From: an uncultured Bacilli bacterium
Lineage (GTDB): Bacteria > Bacillota_I > Bacilli_A > RF39 > UBA660
Length of the DNA stretch: 36,759 nt
Reading direction: 5' to 3'
Assembly (NCBI GenBank): GCA_947628895.1
Contig: CANRBS010000008.1
Coordinates: 1-36,759 of the forward strand
The position numbers and the translations under genes were made by a program. Under the pieces are notes generated by a model. That model had not been told where the DNA came from and searched no databases. It worked only from the letters and a program-made list of their open reading frames with translations. Below are positions 81 to 21,406 of the stretch, piece after piece. Position 1 is the first letter of the stretch. Every line of letters begins with the position of its first letter.

Positions 81-139
81 CTTTTCAAAAAAAGAAGTGT
101 TTTTATAATTTATGGCTAATTATATAGTAGGAGGACAAA

Positions 140-2203
140 ATGAATAAAAAATTAATAGTAAAGCAAAATAGCTCAAAAGACTGTGCAAGTGCATGTCTAC
201 TTTCAATAATGAAATACTATAATTATGAAGTTTCACTTGATGAATTATCTTACATATTAAAAACTGATAGTCAAGGAACAAATGCTTTTAACCTAATAAA
301 TGGTGCAAGAGAATTTGGATTTGATGGTTATGGTATTCATTATAGTTATGAAAATATTATTAATAATAATGTAGAATTTCCAATAATATGTCATGTAAGG
401 AAAAATAATAATTATCATTTTATAGTAGTATATAAAATTAAGAATAAATATTTAGAAATAATGGATCCCTCTTCAAACATATATAAAATGAATAAAAATG
501 ATTTTAAAATGATTTATTTAAATACGGCTATTGTAATATTTCCAATTAAAGAATTTAAAGAAAGTTCTAATCATAAAAATTTATTTGAATTTATGTTTGA
601 CTATATAAAAATAGAAAAAAATACTATTATTAAAATAATAATATTATCTATAATTATTACATTATTATATGTCATTAGTAATTTATTCACCTCTATATCT
701 ATTGACAAAATTATACCTAATTTTAACTATACAATATTTTGCTTTATTACTATTATATTCTTATTAAATTCTTTATTAAAAAACACTTTACTATACATTA
801 AAAATAAATCACTAATTGATGTAGAAAATAATCTTTATTCTAAATTTAATATAGATGTAATAAGAAAACTTTTTGCCCTCCCTTATCAATTTTTTAAAAA
901 TAAATCTACTGGTGAAGTAATTAATAGAATTAATGATGTTAAATTATTTAAAGATTTAATTACTAAAATTATTGTTACTATTTCAATGGATATTATACTA
1001 ATAATTATAAGTATGATAATACTATTAATTATTAACCACAAAATATTTATTATTAATTTAATTCAATTAGTTTTATATTTTTTAATAGTTATTGTTTATA
1101 AAAGAATATTTATTTATGAAGTTGAAAATATATTAATAAGTGATGCTTTGTTTAGTAAAGATTTAAGTGAAAGTATTAATGGTTATGAAGTAAATAAAAA
1201 TCTAAATTTAATTAAAGGAAAAGTAATGTCACTTGAAATTAAATTTAAAAGCTATATAAATAAAACAATTTCTTTTAATAGTAAATTAAATACACAAGAA
1301 TTACTAAAAAATATTATTGTTGATATAACTAATATTTTATGTATATTTATAGGTATTATTTATGTTTATAAAAAATATATGACTATAGGAGAATTTATAT
1401 TATATAATTCAATCATTTATTATTTTAATGAACCAATAAAAAATATATTAGATTTAAGTTTAAATTTTAATTATTTAAATAACATATATAGAAGAATAAA
1501 TGACTTATTAATTATGAAAAGTATTAATTATAAAGAAAGTAATTATAATTTAAAAGGAGATATAATTATAAAAAATTTATCCTACTCTCATAATAAAATA
1601 AATAATTTATTTGAAAATATTAATTTAGAAATTAAATATGGAAGTAAATTTTTAATATATGGTAAAAGTGGTAGTGGTAAAAGCACATTAATTAAAATAA
1701 TTCTTAAATATTTAGAAGATTACAAAGGAGAAGTATACATTAATAATATAAATATTAAAGACATTGAGTTTAATTTAATGAATAATATAACTTATGTTTC
1801 ACAAAATAACTATTTAAATAATGATACGATTAAAAATAATATAATTTATGATAGAAATATAAATGATGAAGAATATGAAAATATATTAGATATTTGTAAT
1901 TTAAAATATTTAAGAGATAGTAAAAAATTAAGAAATAATTTTATTATTGAAGATAATGGATTTAATATATCTGGTGGTGAAAAACAAAAAATAATTTTAG
2001 CAAGAGCACTTCTAAATAATAGTAATTATTTAATTCTAGATGAAGCTTTAAGCGAAGTTGGTTTAAATGAAGAAAAAGAGATAATTAATAAAATATTTTG
2101 TATTTATCATGATAGAACTATTATTTATATTTCACATAAAAAAGAAATAATTAATTTATTCAAGGATAAATATAAATTAGAAAGGAGTAAGGTTTATGAT
2201 TGA
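140..2203 (+). CDS. Bacteriocin/peptide-processing ABC exporter with N-terminal C39 cysteine peptidase
   Basis: N-terminal C39 motif (KQNSSKDCASACLLSIMKYY; catalytic His in NNYHFIVVY, Asp in EIMDPSS), transmembrane segments, Walker A GKSGSGKST, signature ISGGEKQ, Walker B YLILDEA; SD TAGGAGGAC. Confidence 0.93.
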   Translation: MNKKLIVKQNSSKDCASACLLSIMKYYNYEVSLDELSYILKTDSQGTNAFNLINGAREFGFDGYGIHYSYENIINNNVEFPIICHVRKNNNYHFIVVYKIKNKYLEIMDPSSNIYKMNKNDFKMIYLNTAIVIFPIKEFKESSNHKNLFEFMFDYIKIEKNTIIKIIILSIIITLLYVISNLFTSISIDKIIPNFNYTIFCFITIIFLLNSLLKNTLLYIKNKSLIDVENNLYSKFNIDVIRKLFALPYQFFKNKSTGEVINRINDVKLFKDLITKIIVTISMDIILIIISMIILLIINHKIFIINLIQLVLYFLIVIVYKRIFIYEVENILISDALFSKDLSESINGYEVNKNLNLIKGKVMSLEIKFKSYINKTISFNSKLNTQELLKNIIVDITNILCIFIGIIYVYKKYMTIGEFILYNSIIYYFNEPIKNILDLSLNFNYLNNIYRRINDLLIMKSINYKESNYNLKGDIIIKNLSYSHNKINNLFENINLEIKYGSKFLIYGKSGSGKSTLIKIILKYLEDYKGEVYINNINIKDIEFNLMNNITYVSQNNYLNNDTIKNNIIYDRNINDEEYENILDICNLKYLRDSKKLRNNFIIEDNGFNISGGEKQKIILARALLNNSNYLILDEALSEVGLNEEKEIINKIFCIYHDRTIIYISHKKEIINLFKDKYKLERSKVYD

Positions 2204-2327
2204 TAATAATGAATTATTGACTATATATGGTGGTTCAAAAATAATTGCTGGTGGTATAATAATTGGAATAATTGTTTTTTTTATAGGTATAATTGATGGA
2301 TATTATAGACCAGAAGATTGTGATTAG
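2196..2327 (+). CDS. Double-glycine leader precursor peptide 1 (43 aa; putative bacteriocin component), not in ORF track
   Basis: MIDNNELLTIYGG|SKIIAGGIIIGIIVFFIGIIDGYYRPEDCD. SD GGAG at 2184-2187; ATGATTGA 8-nt overlap with exporter stop; C39-type leader ELLxIYGG. Confidence 0.85.
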   Translation: MIDNNELLTIYGGSKIIAGGIIIGIIVFFIGIIDGYYRPEDCD

Positions 2328-2487
2328 CGATATAGAATTATTAAACATTTATGGAGGTGGTGAAAGTATAAGTGCAACACTCTTAAATGCAATTATAAGA
2401 GGACTTAATACTTTATATGAACTAGGAAGGTCACTTGGAAGCACAATTAGAAGAATTAGAGAAGATAAATTATGTGAAATAAGCTAA
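2320..2487 (+). CDS. Double-glycine leader precursor peptide 2 (55 aa from GTG 2320; track start at TTG 2293)
   Basis: MISDIELLNIYGG|GESISATLLNAIIRGLNTLYELGRSLGSTIRRIREDKLCEIS. Leader aligns without gaps to peptide 1 when GTG 2320 is the start; GTGATTAG overlap with the upstream stop. Confidence 0.82.
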   Translation: MISDIELLNIYGGGESISATLLNAIIRGLNTLYELGRSLGSTIRRIREDKLCEIS

Positions 2488-2508
2488 CTTAAAAATAAGT
2501 TAGCTTTT
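2481..2508 (+). terminator. Intrinsic terminator-like hairpin of the exporter/peptide operon
   Basis: AAGCTAACTTA-AAAA-TAAGTTAGCTT (11-bp stem, 4-nt loop) at the stop codon of peptide 2. Confidence 0.75.
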
Positions 2509-2542: not shown

Positions 2543-3271
2543 TTAAATAGCTTCATTAGTAATTATTTTTGCATGTAAACCATCATCTAATTTATATAAT
2601 CCTAATACTCTCCAGTTAGCTTTAGAACTACCATATTTTAAATAATTATTAACATTATCACCAGATATAATGCAAGCATCTACTTCTACTCCGTTTGCTA
2701 CAAGTCCAGTATTATTTGCATTACATTGACAACTTACAACATTACCACTTTCAGTCATAGTTTGACCTGTAAATTGTTTGTTATTAAATCCATCACATAT
2801 AGAATCTACTAATTTTGGTATTTCTGTTTGAGTTCCGCCTCCACCAGATCCACCACCACTAAGTGTATCTCTAAATGTACCAGCTATACCAATACTTTCT
2901 TTTCTTAAAATAACTTTTTCATTATTCATAGATTCTTTACTAACAGGATCAATCATACATCCTTTTTCTGTTTGACCTTTTGAACTTCCAACACATGCAT
3001 CTTTACCTGAAGTAACATCAACTGTTAAATAATTTGATTCAATTAATTCATAAACATAAACTTCAACTTCAGAAATACCATTAAATATTTCTTCGTTATT
3101 ACTTCCATATAATTCTGCTGCAGATACAATATAAGCTATTTTTTCTGCTCTTAGTCTTTCATTAATATTATTATTAATTGTTATTACACTAGGTACTATA
3201 ATTAAACTTAATACAGCAATAATTGCTATAACTACAAGTAATTCTGTTAAAGTAAAACCTTTTTTATTCAT
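2543..3271 (-). CDS. Type IV pilin-like protein with Gly-rich linker and C-terminal domain
   Basis: MNKKG/FTLTELLVVIAIIAVLSLIIVPS class III prepilin signal; GGGSGGGG linker. Start at the MNKKG Met rather than the tracked 3328. Confidence 0.8.
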   Translation of the reverse strand: MNKKGFTLTELLVVIAIIAVLSLIIVPSVITINNNINERLRAEKIAYIVSAAELYGSNNEEIFNGISEVEVYVYELIESNYLTVDVTSGKDACVGSSKGQTEKGCMIDPVSKESMNNEKVILRKESIGIAGTFRDTLSGGGSGGGGTQTEIPKLVDSICDGFNNKQFTGQTMTESGNVVSCQCNANNTGLVANGVEVDACIISGDNVNNYLKYGSSKANWRVLGLYKLDDGLHAKIITNEAI

Positions 3272-3320
3272 ATAAATAACCTCTATTCTATATACATTAT
3301 AATAGAAATAAGATATATTT

Positions 3321-3914
3321 TCAAGCATTTTTATTTAGAATATTTTCTATTATTTCATACACTCTATCTTTTCCTATTTTACTTATACTAGAAAAGTTTA
3401 ATATTTCATCTCCTAAAGCAGGTTCTAAAGTCTTTTTTATCAATTCATCTTGCTTTTCTCTAAGTCCTCTATTTACTTTATCATATTTAGTACATATTAT
3501 TGTAACAGGAAGATTATAATACTTTAAAAATTTATACATAAGTAAGTCATCTTCAGTTGGTTTATGTCTATAATCTATAAGTAAAAAAACATGTTTTAAA
3601 TTTTGTCTTTGTTTTAAATATTCTTCAATCATTAATCCAAATTTTTCAGTTTGTTTTTTACTTGTTTGAGCATACCCATATCCAGGAACATCTACTATAT
3701 AAAATTCATTATTAACAAGATAAAAATTTAATGTTTGAGTTTTTCCTGGTTTGCTACTAGTTCTTGCCATATTTTTTCTATTTATAATTGTATTTATAAA
3801 ACTACTCTTACCAACATTACTTCTACCAAGTATTAAAAACTCACTTTTCTTATCATCTGGATATTGACTAATTCTAACTGCAATTATTGGTTCATTAACA
3901 CTAATTACTTCCAT
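3321..3914 (-). CDS. engB: Ribosome biogenesis GTPase EngB/YsxC/YihA
   Basis: G1 GRSNVGKSSFIN, G3 DVPGYGYA, TKYDK; start at internal Met preceded by AAGGTG. Confidence 0.93.
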   Translation of the reverse strand: MEVISVNEPIIAVRISQYPDDKKSEFLILGRSNVGKSSFINTIINRKNMARTSSKPGKTQTLNFYLVNNEFYIVDVPGYGYAQTSKKQTEKFGLMIEEYLKQRQNLKHVFLLIDYRHKPTEDDLLMYKFLKYYNLPVTIICTKYDKVNRGLREKQDELIKKTLEPALGDEILNFSSISKIGKDRVYEIIENILNKNA

Positions 3915-7192: not shown

Positions 7193-7648
7193 TTAATTAC
7201 AAGTTCCCAATTTTTCATCAAGATCACTAAATTGAGCTGAGGCTGATTTAGATCCTCCAGCATTTTTACTTGATACTAAATCATCAATTTTAATTGCTGT
7301 ACTATTAGATGCACTTCCAGCTTCAAGTTGATATGATTCATCATATACTTGGAAATGTACTATATCACCAGCAGCTGAGAATTTAATATAGTAATTCATT
7401 GATTTTCCATCAAGTTTTAATGGATTCTTTGCACTTGAATAACAAACTCCAACTCCACTTCCACTAATTGAATCATTTACATATTGTGTTTTTGCTGTTT
7501 GGAATATTTTTTGTGCTTCTGTTACAAATGTATTTTCTTTTGCTTCTCTAAACATTTCAAGTACATTTGGTAAAGCTATAATTACTAAAATTGCTAAGAT
7601 TGCTATTACTGCTAGTAATTCTACTAATGTAAATCCTTTCTTTTTCAT
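7193..7648 (-). CDS. Type IV pilin-like protein, tandem copy 1
   Basis: MKKKG/FTLVELLAVIAILAILVIIALPNVLEMFREAKENTF prepilin signal with E5; SD before ATG. Confidence 0.92.
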   Translation of the reverse strand: MKKKGFTLVELLAVIAILAILVIIALPNVLEMFREAKENTFVTEAQKIFQTAKTQYVNDSISGSGVGVCYSSAKNPLKLDGKSMNYYIKFSAAGDIVHFQVYDESYQLEAGSASNSTAIKIDDLVSSKNAGGSKSASAQFSDLDEKLGTCN

Positions 7649-7691
7649 TTTTCACTCTTCCTTTCTTATAGGTTTTCCTATCATATATAAA

Positions 7692-7721
7692 ATTATATCA
7701 TTTATATTTTTTATGTGTCAA
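7692..7721 (-). promoter_or_regulatory. Consensus sigma-A promoter of pilin copy 1
   Basis: TTGACA-18 nt-TATAAT on the minus strand. Confidence 0.8.
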
Positions 7722-7763
7722 TATTTTATAATAAATTATAACTTAATTTACAATTTTTTTACC

Positions 7764-7811
7764 AAAAGAAAAAGATAAATTTAAATAATTAAATTATTTT
7801 GATTTATCTTT
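7764..7811 (-). terminator. Terminator-like hairpin of pilin copy 2
   Basis: AAAGATAAAT...ATTTATCTTT stem with inner AAATAATT/AAATTATTT pairing, T-rich on the minus-strand 3' side. Confidence 0.55.
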
Positions 7812-7828
7812 AAAACTTATAAATTTAA

Positions 7829-8290
7829 TTATTCAGCTGGACAAGCAGCTAATGTTAAACTAGCATATTGAACAGAATTTGTTTTACCATTAGCAGCATT
7901 TTTGCTTGATACTAAATCATCAACTTTAATAGCTTTTACATTTTCTGCATCACCTGCTTCAAGTTGATATGATTCATCATATACTTGGAAATGTACTACA
8001 TCACCAGTAGCTGAGAATTTAACATAATAATTCATTGATTTTCCATCAAGTTTTAATTGATGACCTGCACTAGCACTTGAATAACAAACTCCAACTCCAC
8101 TTCCATTAATTGAATCATTTACATATTGTGTTTTTGCTGTTTGTAATATCTTTTGTGCTTCTGTTACAAATGTATTTTCTTTTGCTTCTCTAAACATTTC
8201 AAGTACATTTGGTAAAGCTATAATTACTAAGATTGCTAAGATTGCTATTACTGCTAGTAATTCTACTAATGTAAATCCTTTCTTTTTCAT
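7829..8290 (-). CDS. Type IV pilin-like protein, tandem copy 2
   Basis: Same N-terminal signal as copy 1; diverges in the C-terminal tail. Confidence 0.92.
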   Translation of the reverse strand: MKKKGFTLVELLAVIAILAILVIIALPNVLEMFREAKENTFVTEAQKILQTAKTQYVNDSINGSGVGVCYSSASAGHQLKLDGKSMNYYVKFSATGDVVHFQVYDESYQLEAGDAENVKAIKVDDLVSSKNAANGKTNSVQYASLTLAACPAE

Positions 8291-8334
8291 TTTTCACTTT
8301 CCTTTCTTATAGGAGTTTTCCCTATCATATAGAA

Positions 8335-8364
8335 ATTATATCATTTATGTTTTTTGTGTGTCAA
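8335..8364 (-). promoter_or_regulatory. Consensus sigma-A promoter of pilin copy 2
   Basis: TTGACA-18 nt-TATAAT on the minus strand. Confidence 0.8.
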
Positions 8365-8410
8365 TATTTTATAATAAATTATAATTTAATTTACAATTTT
8401 TTAGCAAATA

Positions 8411-8435
8411 AAAAACTTAAGTTTTTACTTAAGTT
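8411..8435 (-). terminator. Terminator of pilin copy 3
   Basis: AACTTAAG-TTTTTA-CTTAAGTT hairpin followed on the minus strand by T-run. Confidence 0.65.
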
Positions 8436-8443
8436 AATTACTA

Positions 8444-8902
8444 TTAATCAGCACAAGTAGCTAATTCTAAATTAGCATATTGAACAGAATTTGTTTTACC
8501 ATCAGCTTTATTTTTACTTGAAACTAAACTATCTACTTTAATAGGATCAGTTCCATCAGCTTTACCTGCTTCAAGTTGATATGATTCATCATATACTTGG
8601 AAATGTACTACATCACCACTAGCTGAGAATTTAACATAATAATTCATTGATTTTCCATCAAGTTTTAATTGATGTTTTGTACTAGCACTTGAATAACAAA
8701 CTCCAACTCCACTTCCGTTAATTGAATCATTTACATATTGTGTTTTTGCTGTTTGTAATATTTTTTGTGCCTCTGTTACAAATGTATTTTCTTTTGCTTC
8801 TCTAAACATTTCAAGTACATTTGGTAAAGCTATAATTACTAAGATTGCTAAGATTGCTATTACTGCTAGTAATTCTACTAATGTAAATCCTTTCTTTTTC
8901 AT
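8444..8902 (-). CDS. Type IV pilin-like protein, tandem copy 3
   Basis: Same N-terminal signal as copies 1 and 2. Confidence 0.92.
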   Translation of the reverse strand: MKKKGFTLVELLAVIAILAILVIIALPNVLEMFREAKENTFVTEAQKILQTAKTQYVNDSINGSGVGVCYSSASTKHQLKLDGKSMNYYVKFSASGDVVHFQVYDESYQLEAGKADGTDPIKVDSLVSSKNKADGKTNSVQYANLELATCAD

Positions 8903-17249: not shown

Positions 17250-18725
17250 TTATAAGACTATTGCTATTAAATTATTACTTCCTTTATTAACCATTTTTGT
17301 AATAGTTTGTGAAAGTTTATATTTAGATGTATCAGGTAATAAAGATAATTTTGCTTGTATGCTTTCTTGAACTATTGCTTCTAAGCTTCTTCCAAATATT
17401 TCACTTTGCCATATCTTTTCAGGATTATCTTTATCTTGCATTATATGATCAATTAATTCTTTACTTTGCATTTCACTACCTATTATTGGTTCAAAACTAC
17501 TTTCTACATCTACTTTTACTAAATGAACACTAGTTGCTTTAGCTTTTAATTTAATTCCAAATCTTCCACCTTGTTTAATAATTTCAGGTTTTTCAAGTAC
17601 CATATCTTTGACTCTTGGCTGAACTATTCCATAACCAGTTTGATAAACTTGTTTTAATGCACCTTTAATATTTTCATATTCATTTTTACCTTCACTTAAA
17701 TCTTGGAATACTTTAAGTAAGTCACCTTTTGATGAAATATTTGCTCCTACAAGTTCTTTTAATATATCATTATATAATTCCTCATTTGCATCAAGTGTAA
17801 TAGTCACTTCACTATTATCAGTATCTAAAGAACTAATATATGCTTTTGTAATTTCTACATTGTCTTCTAAAGTTAAATTTATATTTTCAGCATCTCTTAA
17901 TTTATCAACATTTACAATAGATTCTTTCATTTTTGAAATAAATTTTTGTTTTAATGGATGTTGTGGACTTAATACCCCTACCCAATCTGGAATATTAAAT
18001 TCAATATGGTCAATTGGAAATTCATATAATGCTTCTTTTAAAATATTTGTAATATCTGTTTCTGTCATCTCATCTACACTAATAGGAAGTACTGGAACAT
18101 TATATTTTTCATGCATACTTTTAACAAGATTAGTTGTTTCAAAACTATTTGGATGTATTGAATTCATAATAACTATAAATGGCTTATTAATAGTTTTAAG
18201 TTCATTTATCACTTTTTCTTCTGCATCTACATAATTGCTTCTTGATAATTCTCCAATTGAACCATCAGTTGTAACTACAATACCAATAGTTGCATGATCT
18301 TTAATAACTTTTTCTGTTCCAATTTCAGCAGCTTCTACAAATGGAAGTTCTTCTGTAAACCAAGGTGTTTTTACCATTCTAGGATTTCCAAGTTCATCTT
18401 GATATCCTATTGCATCAGGTGTTATAAAACCAACACAATCTACTAATTTTATATTAGTATTTAACCCTTCAATATTTATATTTGCACCACTACTTGGAAC
18501 AAATTTTGGTTCAATAGTCATAATTGTTTTACCAGAAGCAGTTTGTGGTATTTCATCCATACATCTTTTCTTTTCAATTTCATCATCCATATAAGGAAGA
18601 ATTAAAGTTTCAATACATTTTTTAATAAATGTACTTTTTCCTGTTCTAACAGCACCTACTACACCTAAATATATTTCTCCACCTGATTTTTTATTAAGAC
18701 TTTGTAAAATTTGTGTTTTATCCAT
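17250..18725 (-). CDS. spoIVA: Stage IV sporulation protein A (spore coat morphogenetic ATPase)
   Basis: GGEIYLGVVGAVRTGKSTFIKK, DEIPQTASGKTIMTIEPKFVPS, VDCVGF; SD GAGGG before MDKTQI. Confidence 0.95.
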   Translation of the reverse strand: MDKTQILQSLNKKSGGEIYLGVVGAVRTGKSTFIKKCIETLILPYMDDEIEKKRCMDEIPQTASGKTIMTIEPKFVPSSGANINIEGLNTNIKLVDCVGFITPDAIGYQDELGNPRMVKTPWFTEELPFVEAAEIGTEKVIKDHATIGIVVTTDGSIGELSRSNYVDAEEKVINELKTINKPFIVIMNSIHPNSFETTNLVKSMHEKYNVPVLPISVDEMTETDITNILKEALYEFPIDHIEFNIPDWVGVLSPQHPLKQKFISKMKESIVNVDKLRDAENINLTLEDNVEITKAYISSLDTDNSEVTITLDANEELYNDILKELVGANISSKGDLLKVFQDLSEGKNEYENIKGALKQVYQTGYGIVQPRVKDMVLEKPEIIKQGGRFGIKLKAKATSVHLVKVDVESSFEPIIGSEMQSKELIDHIMQDKDNPEKIWQSEIFGRSLEAIVQESIQAKLSLLPDTSKYKLSQTITKMVNKGSNNLIAIVL

Positions 18726-18787
18726 AATAACCCTCTTTCTAGCCATTTAGTAATATTTATGTAATAGATTTTAAAATATGATAAAAT

Positions 18788-18811
18788 AAAAATCACTTTC
18801 GTGATTTTTAT
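18788..18811 (-). terminator. Terminator of secA-like gene
   Basis: AAAAATCAC-TTTC-GTGATTTTT hairpin. Confidence 0.6.
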
Positions 18812-21354
18812 AATGCATAACCATATTCATCTGTTAAATCAGAAGTATTTCTATTAATTTCATAACTTCCATAAGTTAAATTTGGTTTCATAGCATAAGT
18901 CATAAATTCATTCATAATTGTTGGCATTAATTCCATAGAAAATTCATAATTAGCTTTAGTTTCGTATACTTTTAATGGATCTTCACTAGAAACTGTATAA
19001 GATAGCATTTTTTGTAGTTCATCTAATCTATCCATTTCACTTGTCCAATAATCATCTATAATTTTTAACATTTTAACTCTTATATCTTTAACATATTCTA
19101 CATATTGTTCACCTGTTTTATTTTTATTTTCATTATACCAACTAATATACATAGCATTTATCATTTTATTTAAAAATTCATTTGAATTTTTAGAATAGCA
19201 AGATCTTACATCAATTAAATGTCCAACTAGACCTTCCATTTCATCTATTGATTTGTTTCTAATCAAATATTTACAATAATCAGGTATTACTTTTAATTTT
19301 ATATAATTTAATAAATCTATTGGCTCTGAATTTAATATAGCTTCTCTTTTTTCATAAATAATATTCCTATGATTGTTTAATATTTTATTATATTTTTCTT
19401 TTATTCTTCTGTTTTGTTTATTTTTACTATCCATAAGACTTTGTGCTTTATTTACTAATTTTATTATTTTTGCATTTTTTATTCTTCTATCTTTAGCAGT
19501 AGAATATAAACTTTTAAATGCTTTTAATCCTCTACAATAAGATAATATTTCATCATCTAAGGACATAAAATATTTACATTTACCAGGGTCTCCTTGCCTT
19601 GCACATCTTCCTATTAATTGCCTATCAATTCTTTCACTAATGTTTTTACTTGTTCCAATTACATATAACCCTACATTTTCCACTTCTTTACCAAGTTTAA
19701 TATCAGTTCCTCTTCCTGCCATATTAGTAGAAATAGTTACCATATTTTTTTGTCCTGCATTAGCTATAATTCTATTTTCTTCTTCTTCATTCTTTGCATT
19801 TAATAATTGATGTGAAATACCACAGTCTGTCAACAATTTTGATAATTCTTCACTTTCTTTTACACTAGTAGTTCCAAGTAATATAGGTTGTCCTCTTCCT
19901 TCTTTTTTACATCTTATAATTTCTTTTACAATAGCTATATATTTATCATTAGAACTTACATATAACTCTTCTTCTTCAATTTTTCTTCTTACTTCTTTTC
20001 TAGTTGGTACTTCATAAGTTTCAAGACCATATAATTCTAAAAATTCCTCTCTATCACTTGTTCCAGTCATACCACAAACATGTGAATATAATTTTAAAAA
20101 ATCTGGATAAGTTATCATTGCTTTAACTTTAGACCTTTTAGTAAAATTTAATTTATAAGGTGAATTATTCTTTTTAAGTTCATATTGTTCTTTTGCTTCT
20201 ATTGCATATTGTATATCTCCAACATATTTACTTGTTTTTTTAAATCTTCCAATATTTGTATCAATTAATGTTATTTTCTTTGTCCCTTTTTCTTCTCCAT
20301 CAGTAAGTAAATATTCTTTTCCATTTATAAATGAATGTTTTGCTTTTATACAATTAATAATAGCATCATAAATATAATTATATTCTATTTGTTTTATAGG
20401 AGAAGATTCATCAAATCCTCGAAATAATTTATCTTCTAATTCATCTTTTAAATAAATTTCTCCAGTTTCCTTAATATATAAATAATCTTCATAAAAATCA
20501 TTATTTTCTTCTTTTCTTTCTACTACTAATCCTCTAAGTGGATGATCAATATCAGGAATTATACTATTTGGTTCACCATTTAATAATTTAGTTGCCTCTA
20601 TATAATAATTTTTAATTTTATCTTCTGTTTTATCACTATCTATACTTGAAGTTGATAAAATTAAAGGTGTTCTTGCTTGATCAAATAATATATCATCAGC
20701 TTCATCAATAATAGCATATCCAAATTTTCTACTCATTACTTTATTACTTTTATCAAGTACTACATTATCATCTAAATAATCAAATGCAATTGTTCTTGCT
20801 GTAGCATAAATTATATCACTCTTATATGCGGCTTTACTTTCTAATTTTGAATTTTTTCTTGTTACAAAGCCACAAGAAAGTCCTAGTAATTTAAAAACAT
20901 TTTCATTATCTAATTTATCTCTTTTAGCAAGAGCATCATTAGAAGTCATTATATGAACTGAAGTCCATTCATTTTTATCAAGTGAAGAAGTGGCTTCTAA
21001 GGCATTTAAATATGCAATTAAAATCTGTACAAGTGATTTTCCTTCACCTGTTTTCATTTCTGATATTATACCATCATTCATCGCGGAGGCAGCTTCTATT
21101 TGTACATCATATGGCTCTTTTCCTGTCACTCTTCTAGTAGCTTCTCTTACAACAGCTAATGCTTCAATTAATATATCATTAATAGTTTGTCCACCGCGAA
21201 GTCTTCTTCTAAATTCATTAGTTTTATTTATAAAATCTTGTTGAGTCATTCTTATCATATCTTCTCTTCTAGAATTAACACCTTCAACAATTGATCTTAT
21301 TCTTTTTCTATTTCTTTTTGTATAATTACCAAATATTGTTTCTAATAATGCCAT
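18808..21354 (-). CDS. SecA-family preprotein translocase ATPase, divergent (SecA2-like?)
   Basis: SEMKTGEGKSLV, TSNDALAKRD, AIIDEADDILFDQARTPLILS, GMTGTSDREEF, STNMAGRGTDIKLG, RQGDPG; no C-terminal Zn-binding tail. Confidence 0.9.
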   Translation of the reverse strand: MALLETIFGNYTKRNRKRIRSIVEGVNSRREDMIRMTQQDFINKTNEFRRRLRGGQTINDILIEALAVVREATRRVTGKEPYDVQIEAASAMNDGIISEMKTGEGKSLVQILIAYLNALEATSSLDKNEWTSVHIMTSNDALAKRDKLDNENVFKLLGLSCGFVTRKNSKLESKAAYKSDIIYATARTIAFDYLDDNVVLDKSNKVMSRKFGYAIIDEADDILFDQARTPLILSTSSIDSDKTEDKIKNYYIEATKLLNGEPNSIIPDIDHPLRGLVVERKEENNDFYEDYLYIKETGEIYLKDELEDKLFRGFDESSPIKQIEYNYIYDAIINCIKAKHSFINGKEYLLTDGEEKGTKKITLIDTNIGRFKKTSKYVGDIQYAIEAKEQYELKKNNSPYKLNFTKRSKVKAMITYPDFLKLYSHVCGMTGTSDREEFLELYGLETYEVPTRKEVRRKIEEEELYVSSNDKYIAIVKEIIRCKKEGRGQPILLGTTSVKESEELSKLLTDCGISHQLLNAKNEEEENRIIANAGQKNMVTISTNMAGRGTDIKLGKEVENVGLYVIGTSKNISERIDRQLIGRCARQGDPGKCKYFMSLDDEILSYCRGLKAFKSLYSTAKDRRIKNAKIIKLVNKAQSLMDSKNKQNRRIKEKYNKILNNHRNIIYEKREAILNSEPIDLLNYIKLKVIPDYCKYLIRNKSIDEMEGLVGHLIDVRSCYSKNSNEFLNKMINAMYISWYNENKNKTGEQYVEYVKDIRVKMLKIIDDYWTSEMDRLDELQKMLSYTVSSEDPLKVYETKANYEFSMELMPTIMNEFMTYAMKPNLTYGSYEINRNTSDLTDEYGYAL

Positions 21355-21406
21355 ATTTTCCACCTATTCTTACTATAGTATAATATAACATTTTTATTAA
21401 TCTTTT

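What the first reader, a model, noticed from the sequence alone, without database searches (positions are those of the whole stretch)
2196..2487. Two-peptide double-glycine (class IIb bacteriocin-like) system with a hidden 43-aa precursor
Behind the C39-ABC exporter lie two tiny genes. Peptide 1 (2196-2327) is missing from the ORF track: MIDNNELLTIYGG|SKIIAGGIIIGIIVFFIGIIDGYYRPEDCD. Peptide 2 (best start GTG 2320) is MISDIELLNIYGG|GESISATLLNAIIRGLNTLYELGRSLGSTIRRIREDKLCEIS. Leaders are both 13 residues and align without gaps (MI-x3-ELLxIYGG). Predicted cores are complementary, one neutral/acidic and hydrophobic and one cationic and amphipathic. Each has a GxxxG motif (GIIIG; GRSLG), a feature associated with two-peptide class IIb bacteriocins. 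Leader processing and the bacteriocin role are inferred from the C39 exporter family.
Basis: partly seen in the sequence, partly recalled or inferred. Interest (0 to 1): 0.85.

Follow-up and report, generated by a model that had tools for sequence, protein, structure and literature searches.

The report
Order-wide two-peptide bacteriocin-like gene pair
Two overlooked mini-genes behind a peptide exporter are real and strongly conserved; nearly every sampled genome of this bacterial order carries the same pair, which looks like a two-part membrane-active peptide whose halves each keep one invariant cysteine, but no activity has been shown.

Summary
Peptide A (2196-2327) and peptide B (GTG 2320-2487) lie directly behind an intact C39-ABC exporter. 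They are not chance ORFs. A profile of B hits 271 of 288 genomes of the order. In 109 of 115 fetched loci the order is exporter > A > B on one strand, and both genes are under purifying selection. Sampled genomes of the same class outside the family essentially lack them, as do the plasmid and phage collections.

GG leaders, a C39 exporter, two adjacent peptides and conserved GxxxG motifs fit a class IIb-like two-peptide bacteriocin. Three corrections apply. (2) Charge complementarity is not conserved. (3) The strongest feature was missed: a C-terminal cysteine in 111/112 A cores (the exception is truncated) and 111/111 B cores, which suggests a disulfide-joined heterodimer.

In other genera the cassette adds a ~140-aa membrane protein (59/109 loci) and a small one-TM protein C (41/109). 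The end of C resembles the C-terminal half of B (HHalign E 2.5e-7; shuffled controls far lower), suggesting immunity by mimicry. The window's genus lacks both. Antimicrobial action, the disulfide and mimic immunity are inferred.

The parts
130..134 (+). ribosome-binding site (GGAGG) of the exporter
   Evidence: read directly from the sequence
140..2203 (+). C39 peptidase-ABC exporter, 687 aa (PCAT1/ComA-like); expected to remove GG leaders and export
   Evidence: Pfam Peptidase_C39 6e-31, ABC_membrane, ABC_tran; closest solved chains PCAT1 4ry2 E 1.6e-84 and ComA 8hf7 4e-82; orthologues in 16 of 17 genus relatives, counting one contig-end fragment
2182..2187 (+). ribosome-binding site (AAGGAG) of peptide A, inside the exporter gene
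   Evidence: read directly from the sequence
2196..2327 (+). peptide A precursor, 43 aa: leader MIDNNELLTIYGG, core SKIIAGGIIIGIIVFFIGIIDGYYRPEDCD
   Evidence: 112 homologues; AlphaFold monomer one helix 4-41, mean pLDDT 72
2286..2300 (+). conserved GxxxG of A (G31-I-I-D-G35)
   Evidence: G/G in 108 of 112 homologues
2319..2321 (+). invariant C-terminal cysteine of A (C42)
   Evidence: 111 of 112 cores; the exception (G032) is truncated
2320..2487 (+). peptide B precursor, 55 aa from GTG: leader MISDIELLNIYGG, core GESISATLLNAIIRGLNTLYELGRSLGSTIRRIREDKLCEIS
   Evidence: 111 homologues; AlphaFold monomer helix 18-48, mean pLDDT 67
2425..2439 (+). conserved GxxxG of B (G36-R-S-L-G40)
   Evidence: G/G in 111 of 111 homologues
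2473..2475 (+). invariant C-terminal cysteine of B (C52)
   Evidence: 111 of 111 cores
2483..2504 (+). possible end-of-operon hairpin GCTAACTTA-AAAA-TAAGTTAGC; no C gene follows
   Evidence: seen by eye; the terminator scan did not call it

Best explanation
A conserved, apparently vertically inherited two-peptide secreted system of the class IIb bacteriocin type. The C39-ABC exporter cuts both precursors after GG and exports the cores. A is a hydrophobic transmembrane helix ending in DGYxRPxxC. B is an amphipathic helix with LGRxLGxxIRR and a C-terminal Cys. The two helices pair in a target membrane through their GxxxG faces and are probably joined by a disulfide between the two C-terminal cysteines, forming a pore or depolarising complex against competing bacteria. 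In many other genera a small one-TM protein (C) encoded just after B, which repeats B's C-terminal motif, would protect the producer by occupying A in B's place. The window's genus has the bare exporter-A-B form. Shown: the genes, their conservation, linkage, motifs and cysteines, and the C-B similarity. Inferred: export, cleavage, pairing, disulfide, killing, immunity.
For: B profile in 271/288 genomes of the order. Exporter > A > B in 109/115 loci. 13 of 17 B-negative genomes have no C39 exporter, only 4 have a strong one. Invariant motifs and cysteines. Purifying selection. A, B and exporter distances correlate: Mantel r 0.41, 0.34, 0.28, p 0.001. A-relatives above cut-off for TIGR03949. 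D gene in 59 and C gene in 41 of 109 loci. C resembles B: HHalign probability 93, E 2.5e-7, 25 columns; score 29.3 against at most 14.8 in 120 column shuffles, and 12.7 for the reversed C profile. Layout of known class IIb clusters and small one-TM immunity proteins such as CbnZ, 42 aa (PMC6957408). Helical monomer models.
Against: No activity, secretion or disulfide data. No immunity candidate in the window's genome or genus. Near-universality in an order is unusual for bacteriocins, which are usually patchy (own knowledge). Window peptides match no bacteriocin model above cut-off. The invariant Cys could have another role. AlphaFold models are monomers of moderate confidence; the heterodimer was not modelled. 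C-B similarity covers only 25 columns and could be convergence on a GxxxG helix.
Confidence: 0.58

Rival explanations
1. Signalling pair: A and B are secreted pheromones sensed by a membrane kinase, used for density sensing or competence.
For: C39 exporters such as ComA export pheromones; GG leaders of this kind are shared with ComC-type peptides (weak). Near-universality and purifying selection suit a housekeeping signal.
Against: No kinase or regulator gene appears in the conserved cassettes. The genus's HATPase_c_5/LytTR pair sits in its own agr-like locus with an AgrB-like gene; that kinase and the AgrB-like gene were not seen beside the regulator in the window's genome (L152), and G005 and G009 have A and B but no match to either regulator family. 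Very hydrophobic paired helices with GxxxG are not typical pheromones.
Confidence: 0.13
2. Self- or host-directed membrane peptides: the pair inserts in the producer's own envelope, or acts on host cells or other non-bacterial neighbours, as an order-defining trait rather than a weapon between bacteria.
For: Near-universal in the order and often at a fixed address (rpsU downstream in 50 of 96 loci with enough sequence). No separate immunity gene in the window's genus, as expected if the producer is not harmed.
Against: Many other genera carry a candidate immunity gene and an accessory gene, the layout of known bacteriocin clusters.
Confidence: 0.17
3. Class IIb bacteriocin in the ordinary sense, with two separate linear peptides; the cysteines stay reduced or form homodimers, and C is an unrelated immunity protein that only shares a GxxxG helix.
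For: All general class IIb structural features. No thiol oxidase gene was recognised in the cassettes.
Against: A Cys at the same place in every intact core of both families is hard to explain if it does nothing. C-B similarity exceeds all shuffles, and the C profile finds B itself in the genus.
Confidence: 0.12

Closest known systems
Two-peptide class IIb bacteriocins (lactococcin G, plantaricin EF/JK, carnobacteriocin XY; NCBIfam TIGR03949 lactobin A/cerein 7B)
   Same: Two adjacent GG-leader peptides, C39-ABC exporter, helical cores with GxxxG, in other genera an accessory gene and a small one-TM protein in the immunity position; relatives of A exceed the TIGR03949 cut-off.
   Different: Different core sequences; an invariant C-terminal Cys on each chain; nearly universal and apparently restricted to one order; window form lacks accessory and immunity genes; activity unknown.
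CbnZ, immunity protein of carnobacteriocin XY (PMC6957408)
   Same: C is also a small protein (about 40-60 aa) with one TM segment encoded directly after the two peptides.
   Different: C carries the C-terminal motif of peptide B. Whether CbnZ resembles CbnX or CbnY was not tested here.
PCAT1 / ComA C39-ABC exporters
   Same: Full-length alignment, intact C39 domain.
   Different: Substrates differ; below the curated cut-off of TIGR01193 (371.9 vs 523.85 bits).

Membership tests
class IIb two-peptide bacteriocin | two different peptides encoded side by side in one operon | tested here: met
   exporter > A > B on one strand in 109 of 115 loci
class IIb two-peptide bacteriocin | double-glycine leaders with a C39-ABC exporter | tested here: met
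   GG at the site in 108/112 A and 107/111 B; C39 exporter next to them
class IIb two-peptide bacteriocin | GxxxG or GxxxG-like motif in both cores | tested here: met
   108/112 A and 111/111 B
class IIb two-peptide bacteriocin | dedicated membrane-associated immunity protein | tested here: inconclusive
   candidate C in 41 of 109 loci of the order, function unproven; none in the window or its genus
class IIb two-peptide bacteriocin | accessory secretion gene in the cluster | tested here: inconclusive
   D (about 115-170 aa, one TM) in 59 of 109 loci but no Pfam or NCBIfam match above cut-off; absent from the window's genus
class IIb two-peptide bacteriocin | antimicrobial activity that needs both peptides | not testable with these tools
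   needs peptides and indicator strains
NCBIfam TIGR03949 (lactobin A/cerein 7B) | score above curated cut-off 21.5 bits | tested here: not met
   window peptide A: no match; relatives of A in other genera: met, 24.2-32.8 bits
NCBIfam NF038034/NF038035 (lactococcin G beta/alpha) | score above curated cut-off 37 bits | tested here: not met
   window A 9.4 bits; the individual relatives of A scored reach at most 20.8 bits

The most novel reading that the evidence does not exclude
A core-genome, order-defining heterodimeric peptide whose two exported helices are covalently joined by a disulfide between their C-terminal cysteines, with self-protection by a membrane-anchored decoy (C) that copies the C-terminal half of peptide B: a stated mechanism for two-peptide bacteriocin immunity, which the literature read here calls unsolved.
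Probability: 0.28. Interest if true: 0.82.

Novelty: new variant of a known kind. Interest (0 to 1): 0.6.

Why it matters
If true, it would add a two-peptide bacteriocin-like family fixed in nearly a whole order of uncultured bacteria (likely RF39, inferred), where bacteriocins are usually patchy. How immunity proteins of two-peptide bacteriocins work is described as a mystery (PMC6957408). The C-B similarity makes a concrete mechanism, decoy mimicry of one partner, directly testable. The invariant cysteine pair is a testable point that motif-based descriptions of class IIb do not include.

Tried and rejected
Literal sequence search of papers for ELGRSLGS, IDGYVRP and similar: nothing. RF39 plus bacteriocin: 27 papers, none of the 12 listed describes this system by title or abstract start. 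IIBacFinder atlas (preview only, PMC12648078) covers gut class II bacteriocins at scale; the underlying paper is not held, so this family may already be in its lists. PHROGs and PDB: no relatives beyond the GG leader. Plasmids and phages: no match. Viral contig scan: the alignment was too variable to search. Abp118 as an outside control for mimic immunity: peptide not found in the plasmid set, so the generality of mimicry was not tested. One column-shuffle run gave an anomalous score of 132, cause not traced; it was repeated on trimmed columns, 120 shuffles, maximum 14.8. Considered and rejected: chance ORFs (conservation, selection); leader-only similarity (core motifs are as conserved as the leader); horizontal mobile element (often at a fixed address by rpsU, or by rpe in the genus; not on plasmids or phages).

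Full report
Peptide A (2196-2327) and peptide B (GTG 2320-2487) are present as described behind an intact C39-ABC exporter at 140-2203. A has a good ribosome-binding site inside the end of the exporter gene. B starts in an 8-nt overlap with the stop of A, as expected for translational coupling. The window is contig 8 of a 1.46-Mb draft genome with 76 contigs, and the exporter sits at the contig edge, so the upstream side can only be seen in relatives.

The pair is not a chance ORF. Exporter orthologues occur in 16 of 17 genus relatives, counting one fragment at a contig end, and the same two peptides follow. A profile of B found 271 of 288 genomes of the order, 100 of 104 genera. In a class-wide sample it found 51 of 54 genomes of the family but only 4 of 341 outside it, all weak and leader-sided, in one other family. 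I fetched 80 more loci, about one per genus. In all, 109 of 115 loci have exporter > A > B on one strand; the other six lack a part within the stretch fetched. Of the 17 genomes without B, 13 have no C39 exporter either and only 4 have a strong one. Synonymous changes exceed non-synonymous ones per site in A, B and the exporter. Distances of A, B and exporter correlate.

Conserved parts. A: F28, G31, D34, G35, P39, C42. B: G36, G40, R44, R45, C52 (window numbering). The GxxxG that matters in A is GIIDG (108/112), not GIIIG (50/112 have any GxxxG there); B's GRSLG is invariant. Each core has a Cys near its C terminus: 111 of 112 A, the exception being a truncated gene, and 111 of 111 B; 104 cores of each have exactly one. 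The Cys background in the window's large ORFs is about 1.2%. Charge complementarity is not conserved. Monomer models show a long helix in each, at moderate confidence.

In other genera the cassette is larger. A gene of about 115-170 aa with one TM segment (D) lies between exporter and A in 59 of 109 loci. A small one-TM protein (C), mostly 38-62 aa, begins 6-16 nt before the end of B in nearly all of the loci that have it, 41 of 109. C ends in a GxxxG-R motif. HHalign aligns C with the C-terminal half of B (probability 93, E 2.5e-7, 25 columns). The reversed C profile scores 12.7, and 120 column shuffles score at most 14.8 against 29.3. The C profile also finds B itself in the window's genus, and no free-standing C in the window's genome. 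This exporter-accessory-peptide-peptide-small TM protein layout is the one described for two-peptide bacteriocins, whose immunity mechanism is called a mystery (PMC6957408). In about half of the loci the cassette lies before rpsU. In the genus of the window it often follows rpe; in the window itself rpe is 29 kb away, so the locus has moved.

How it most likely works. The exporter cuts after GG and exports both cores. A spans the membrane. B is an amphipathic, usually cationic helix that packs on A through GxxxG. The paired C-terminal cysteines suggest a covalent heterodimer. The result would be a pore or depolarising complex in competitors. C would block A in the producer. The steps after gene conservation are inference. 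The signalling rival is weakened by the lack of linked regulators, by the fact that the genus's kinase/LytTR pair belongs to its own agr-like locus, and by two genomes that keep A and B without matches to either regulator family. A self- or host-directed role remains open because the window's genus has no immunity candidate.

Membership. The system works like a class IIb bacteriocin. General structural features are met, but activity is untested, the immunity gene is not found in the window's genus, and the window peptide is below the TIGR03949 cut-off, although relatives exceed it. I therefore call it class IIb-like, a new variant, rather than filing it as a proven member. The atlas behind PMC12648078 may contain some of these peptides; its lists could not be read.

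Taxonomy. Named relatives are uncultured Bacilli/Tenericutes MAGs, among them isolates labelled Lapin and goat omasum.

Noticed in passing
L153 3568-6345, L154, L155, L157, L160; window genome L152: An agr-like locus (LytTR regulator, ~430-aa HATPase_c_5 kinase, AgrB-like gene on the other strand) lies before csp/hpf/secA in many genomes of the genus. In the window's genome only the LytTR regulator was seen next to the cold-shock genes.
   Followed up: partly
window 7193-8902 (-) and 2543-3328 (-): Three tandem, nearly identical pilin-like genes with an N-terminal methylation motif and different C-terminal ends, plus a fourth pilin-like gene convergent with peptide B.
   Followed up: partly
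window 17250-18746 (-): Complete SpoIVA (all three Pfam domains) in a 1.46-Mb draft genome, suggesting sporulation ability.
   Followed up: partly
window 18808-21363 (-): An 851-aa SecA-like protein with weak preprotein-binding scores, possibly an accessory SecA.
   Followed up: no
class search: G039, G422, G481, G535: Weak leader-only hits of the B profile in 91-141-aa ORFs of another family; GG-type leaders on longer proteins (compare NCBIfam MPN313) may be exported by related C39 transporters.
   Followed up: no
G214, G280, G106, G070 (loci L077, L130, L096, L151): Some cassettes hold extra A- or B-like small ORFs, suggesting duplication of the pair.
   Followed up: no
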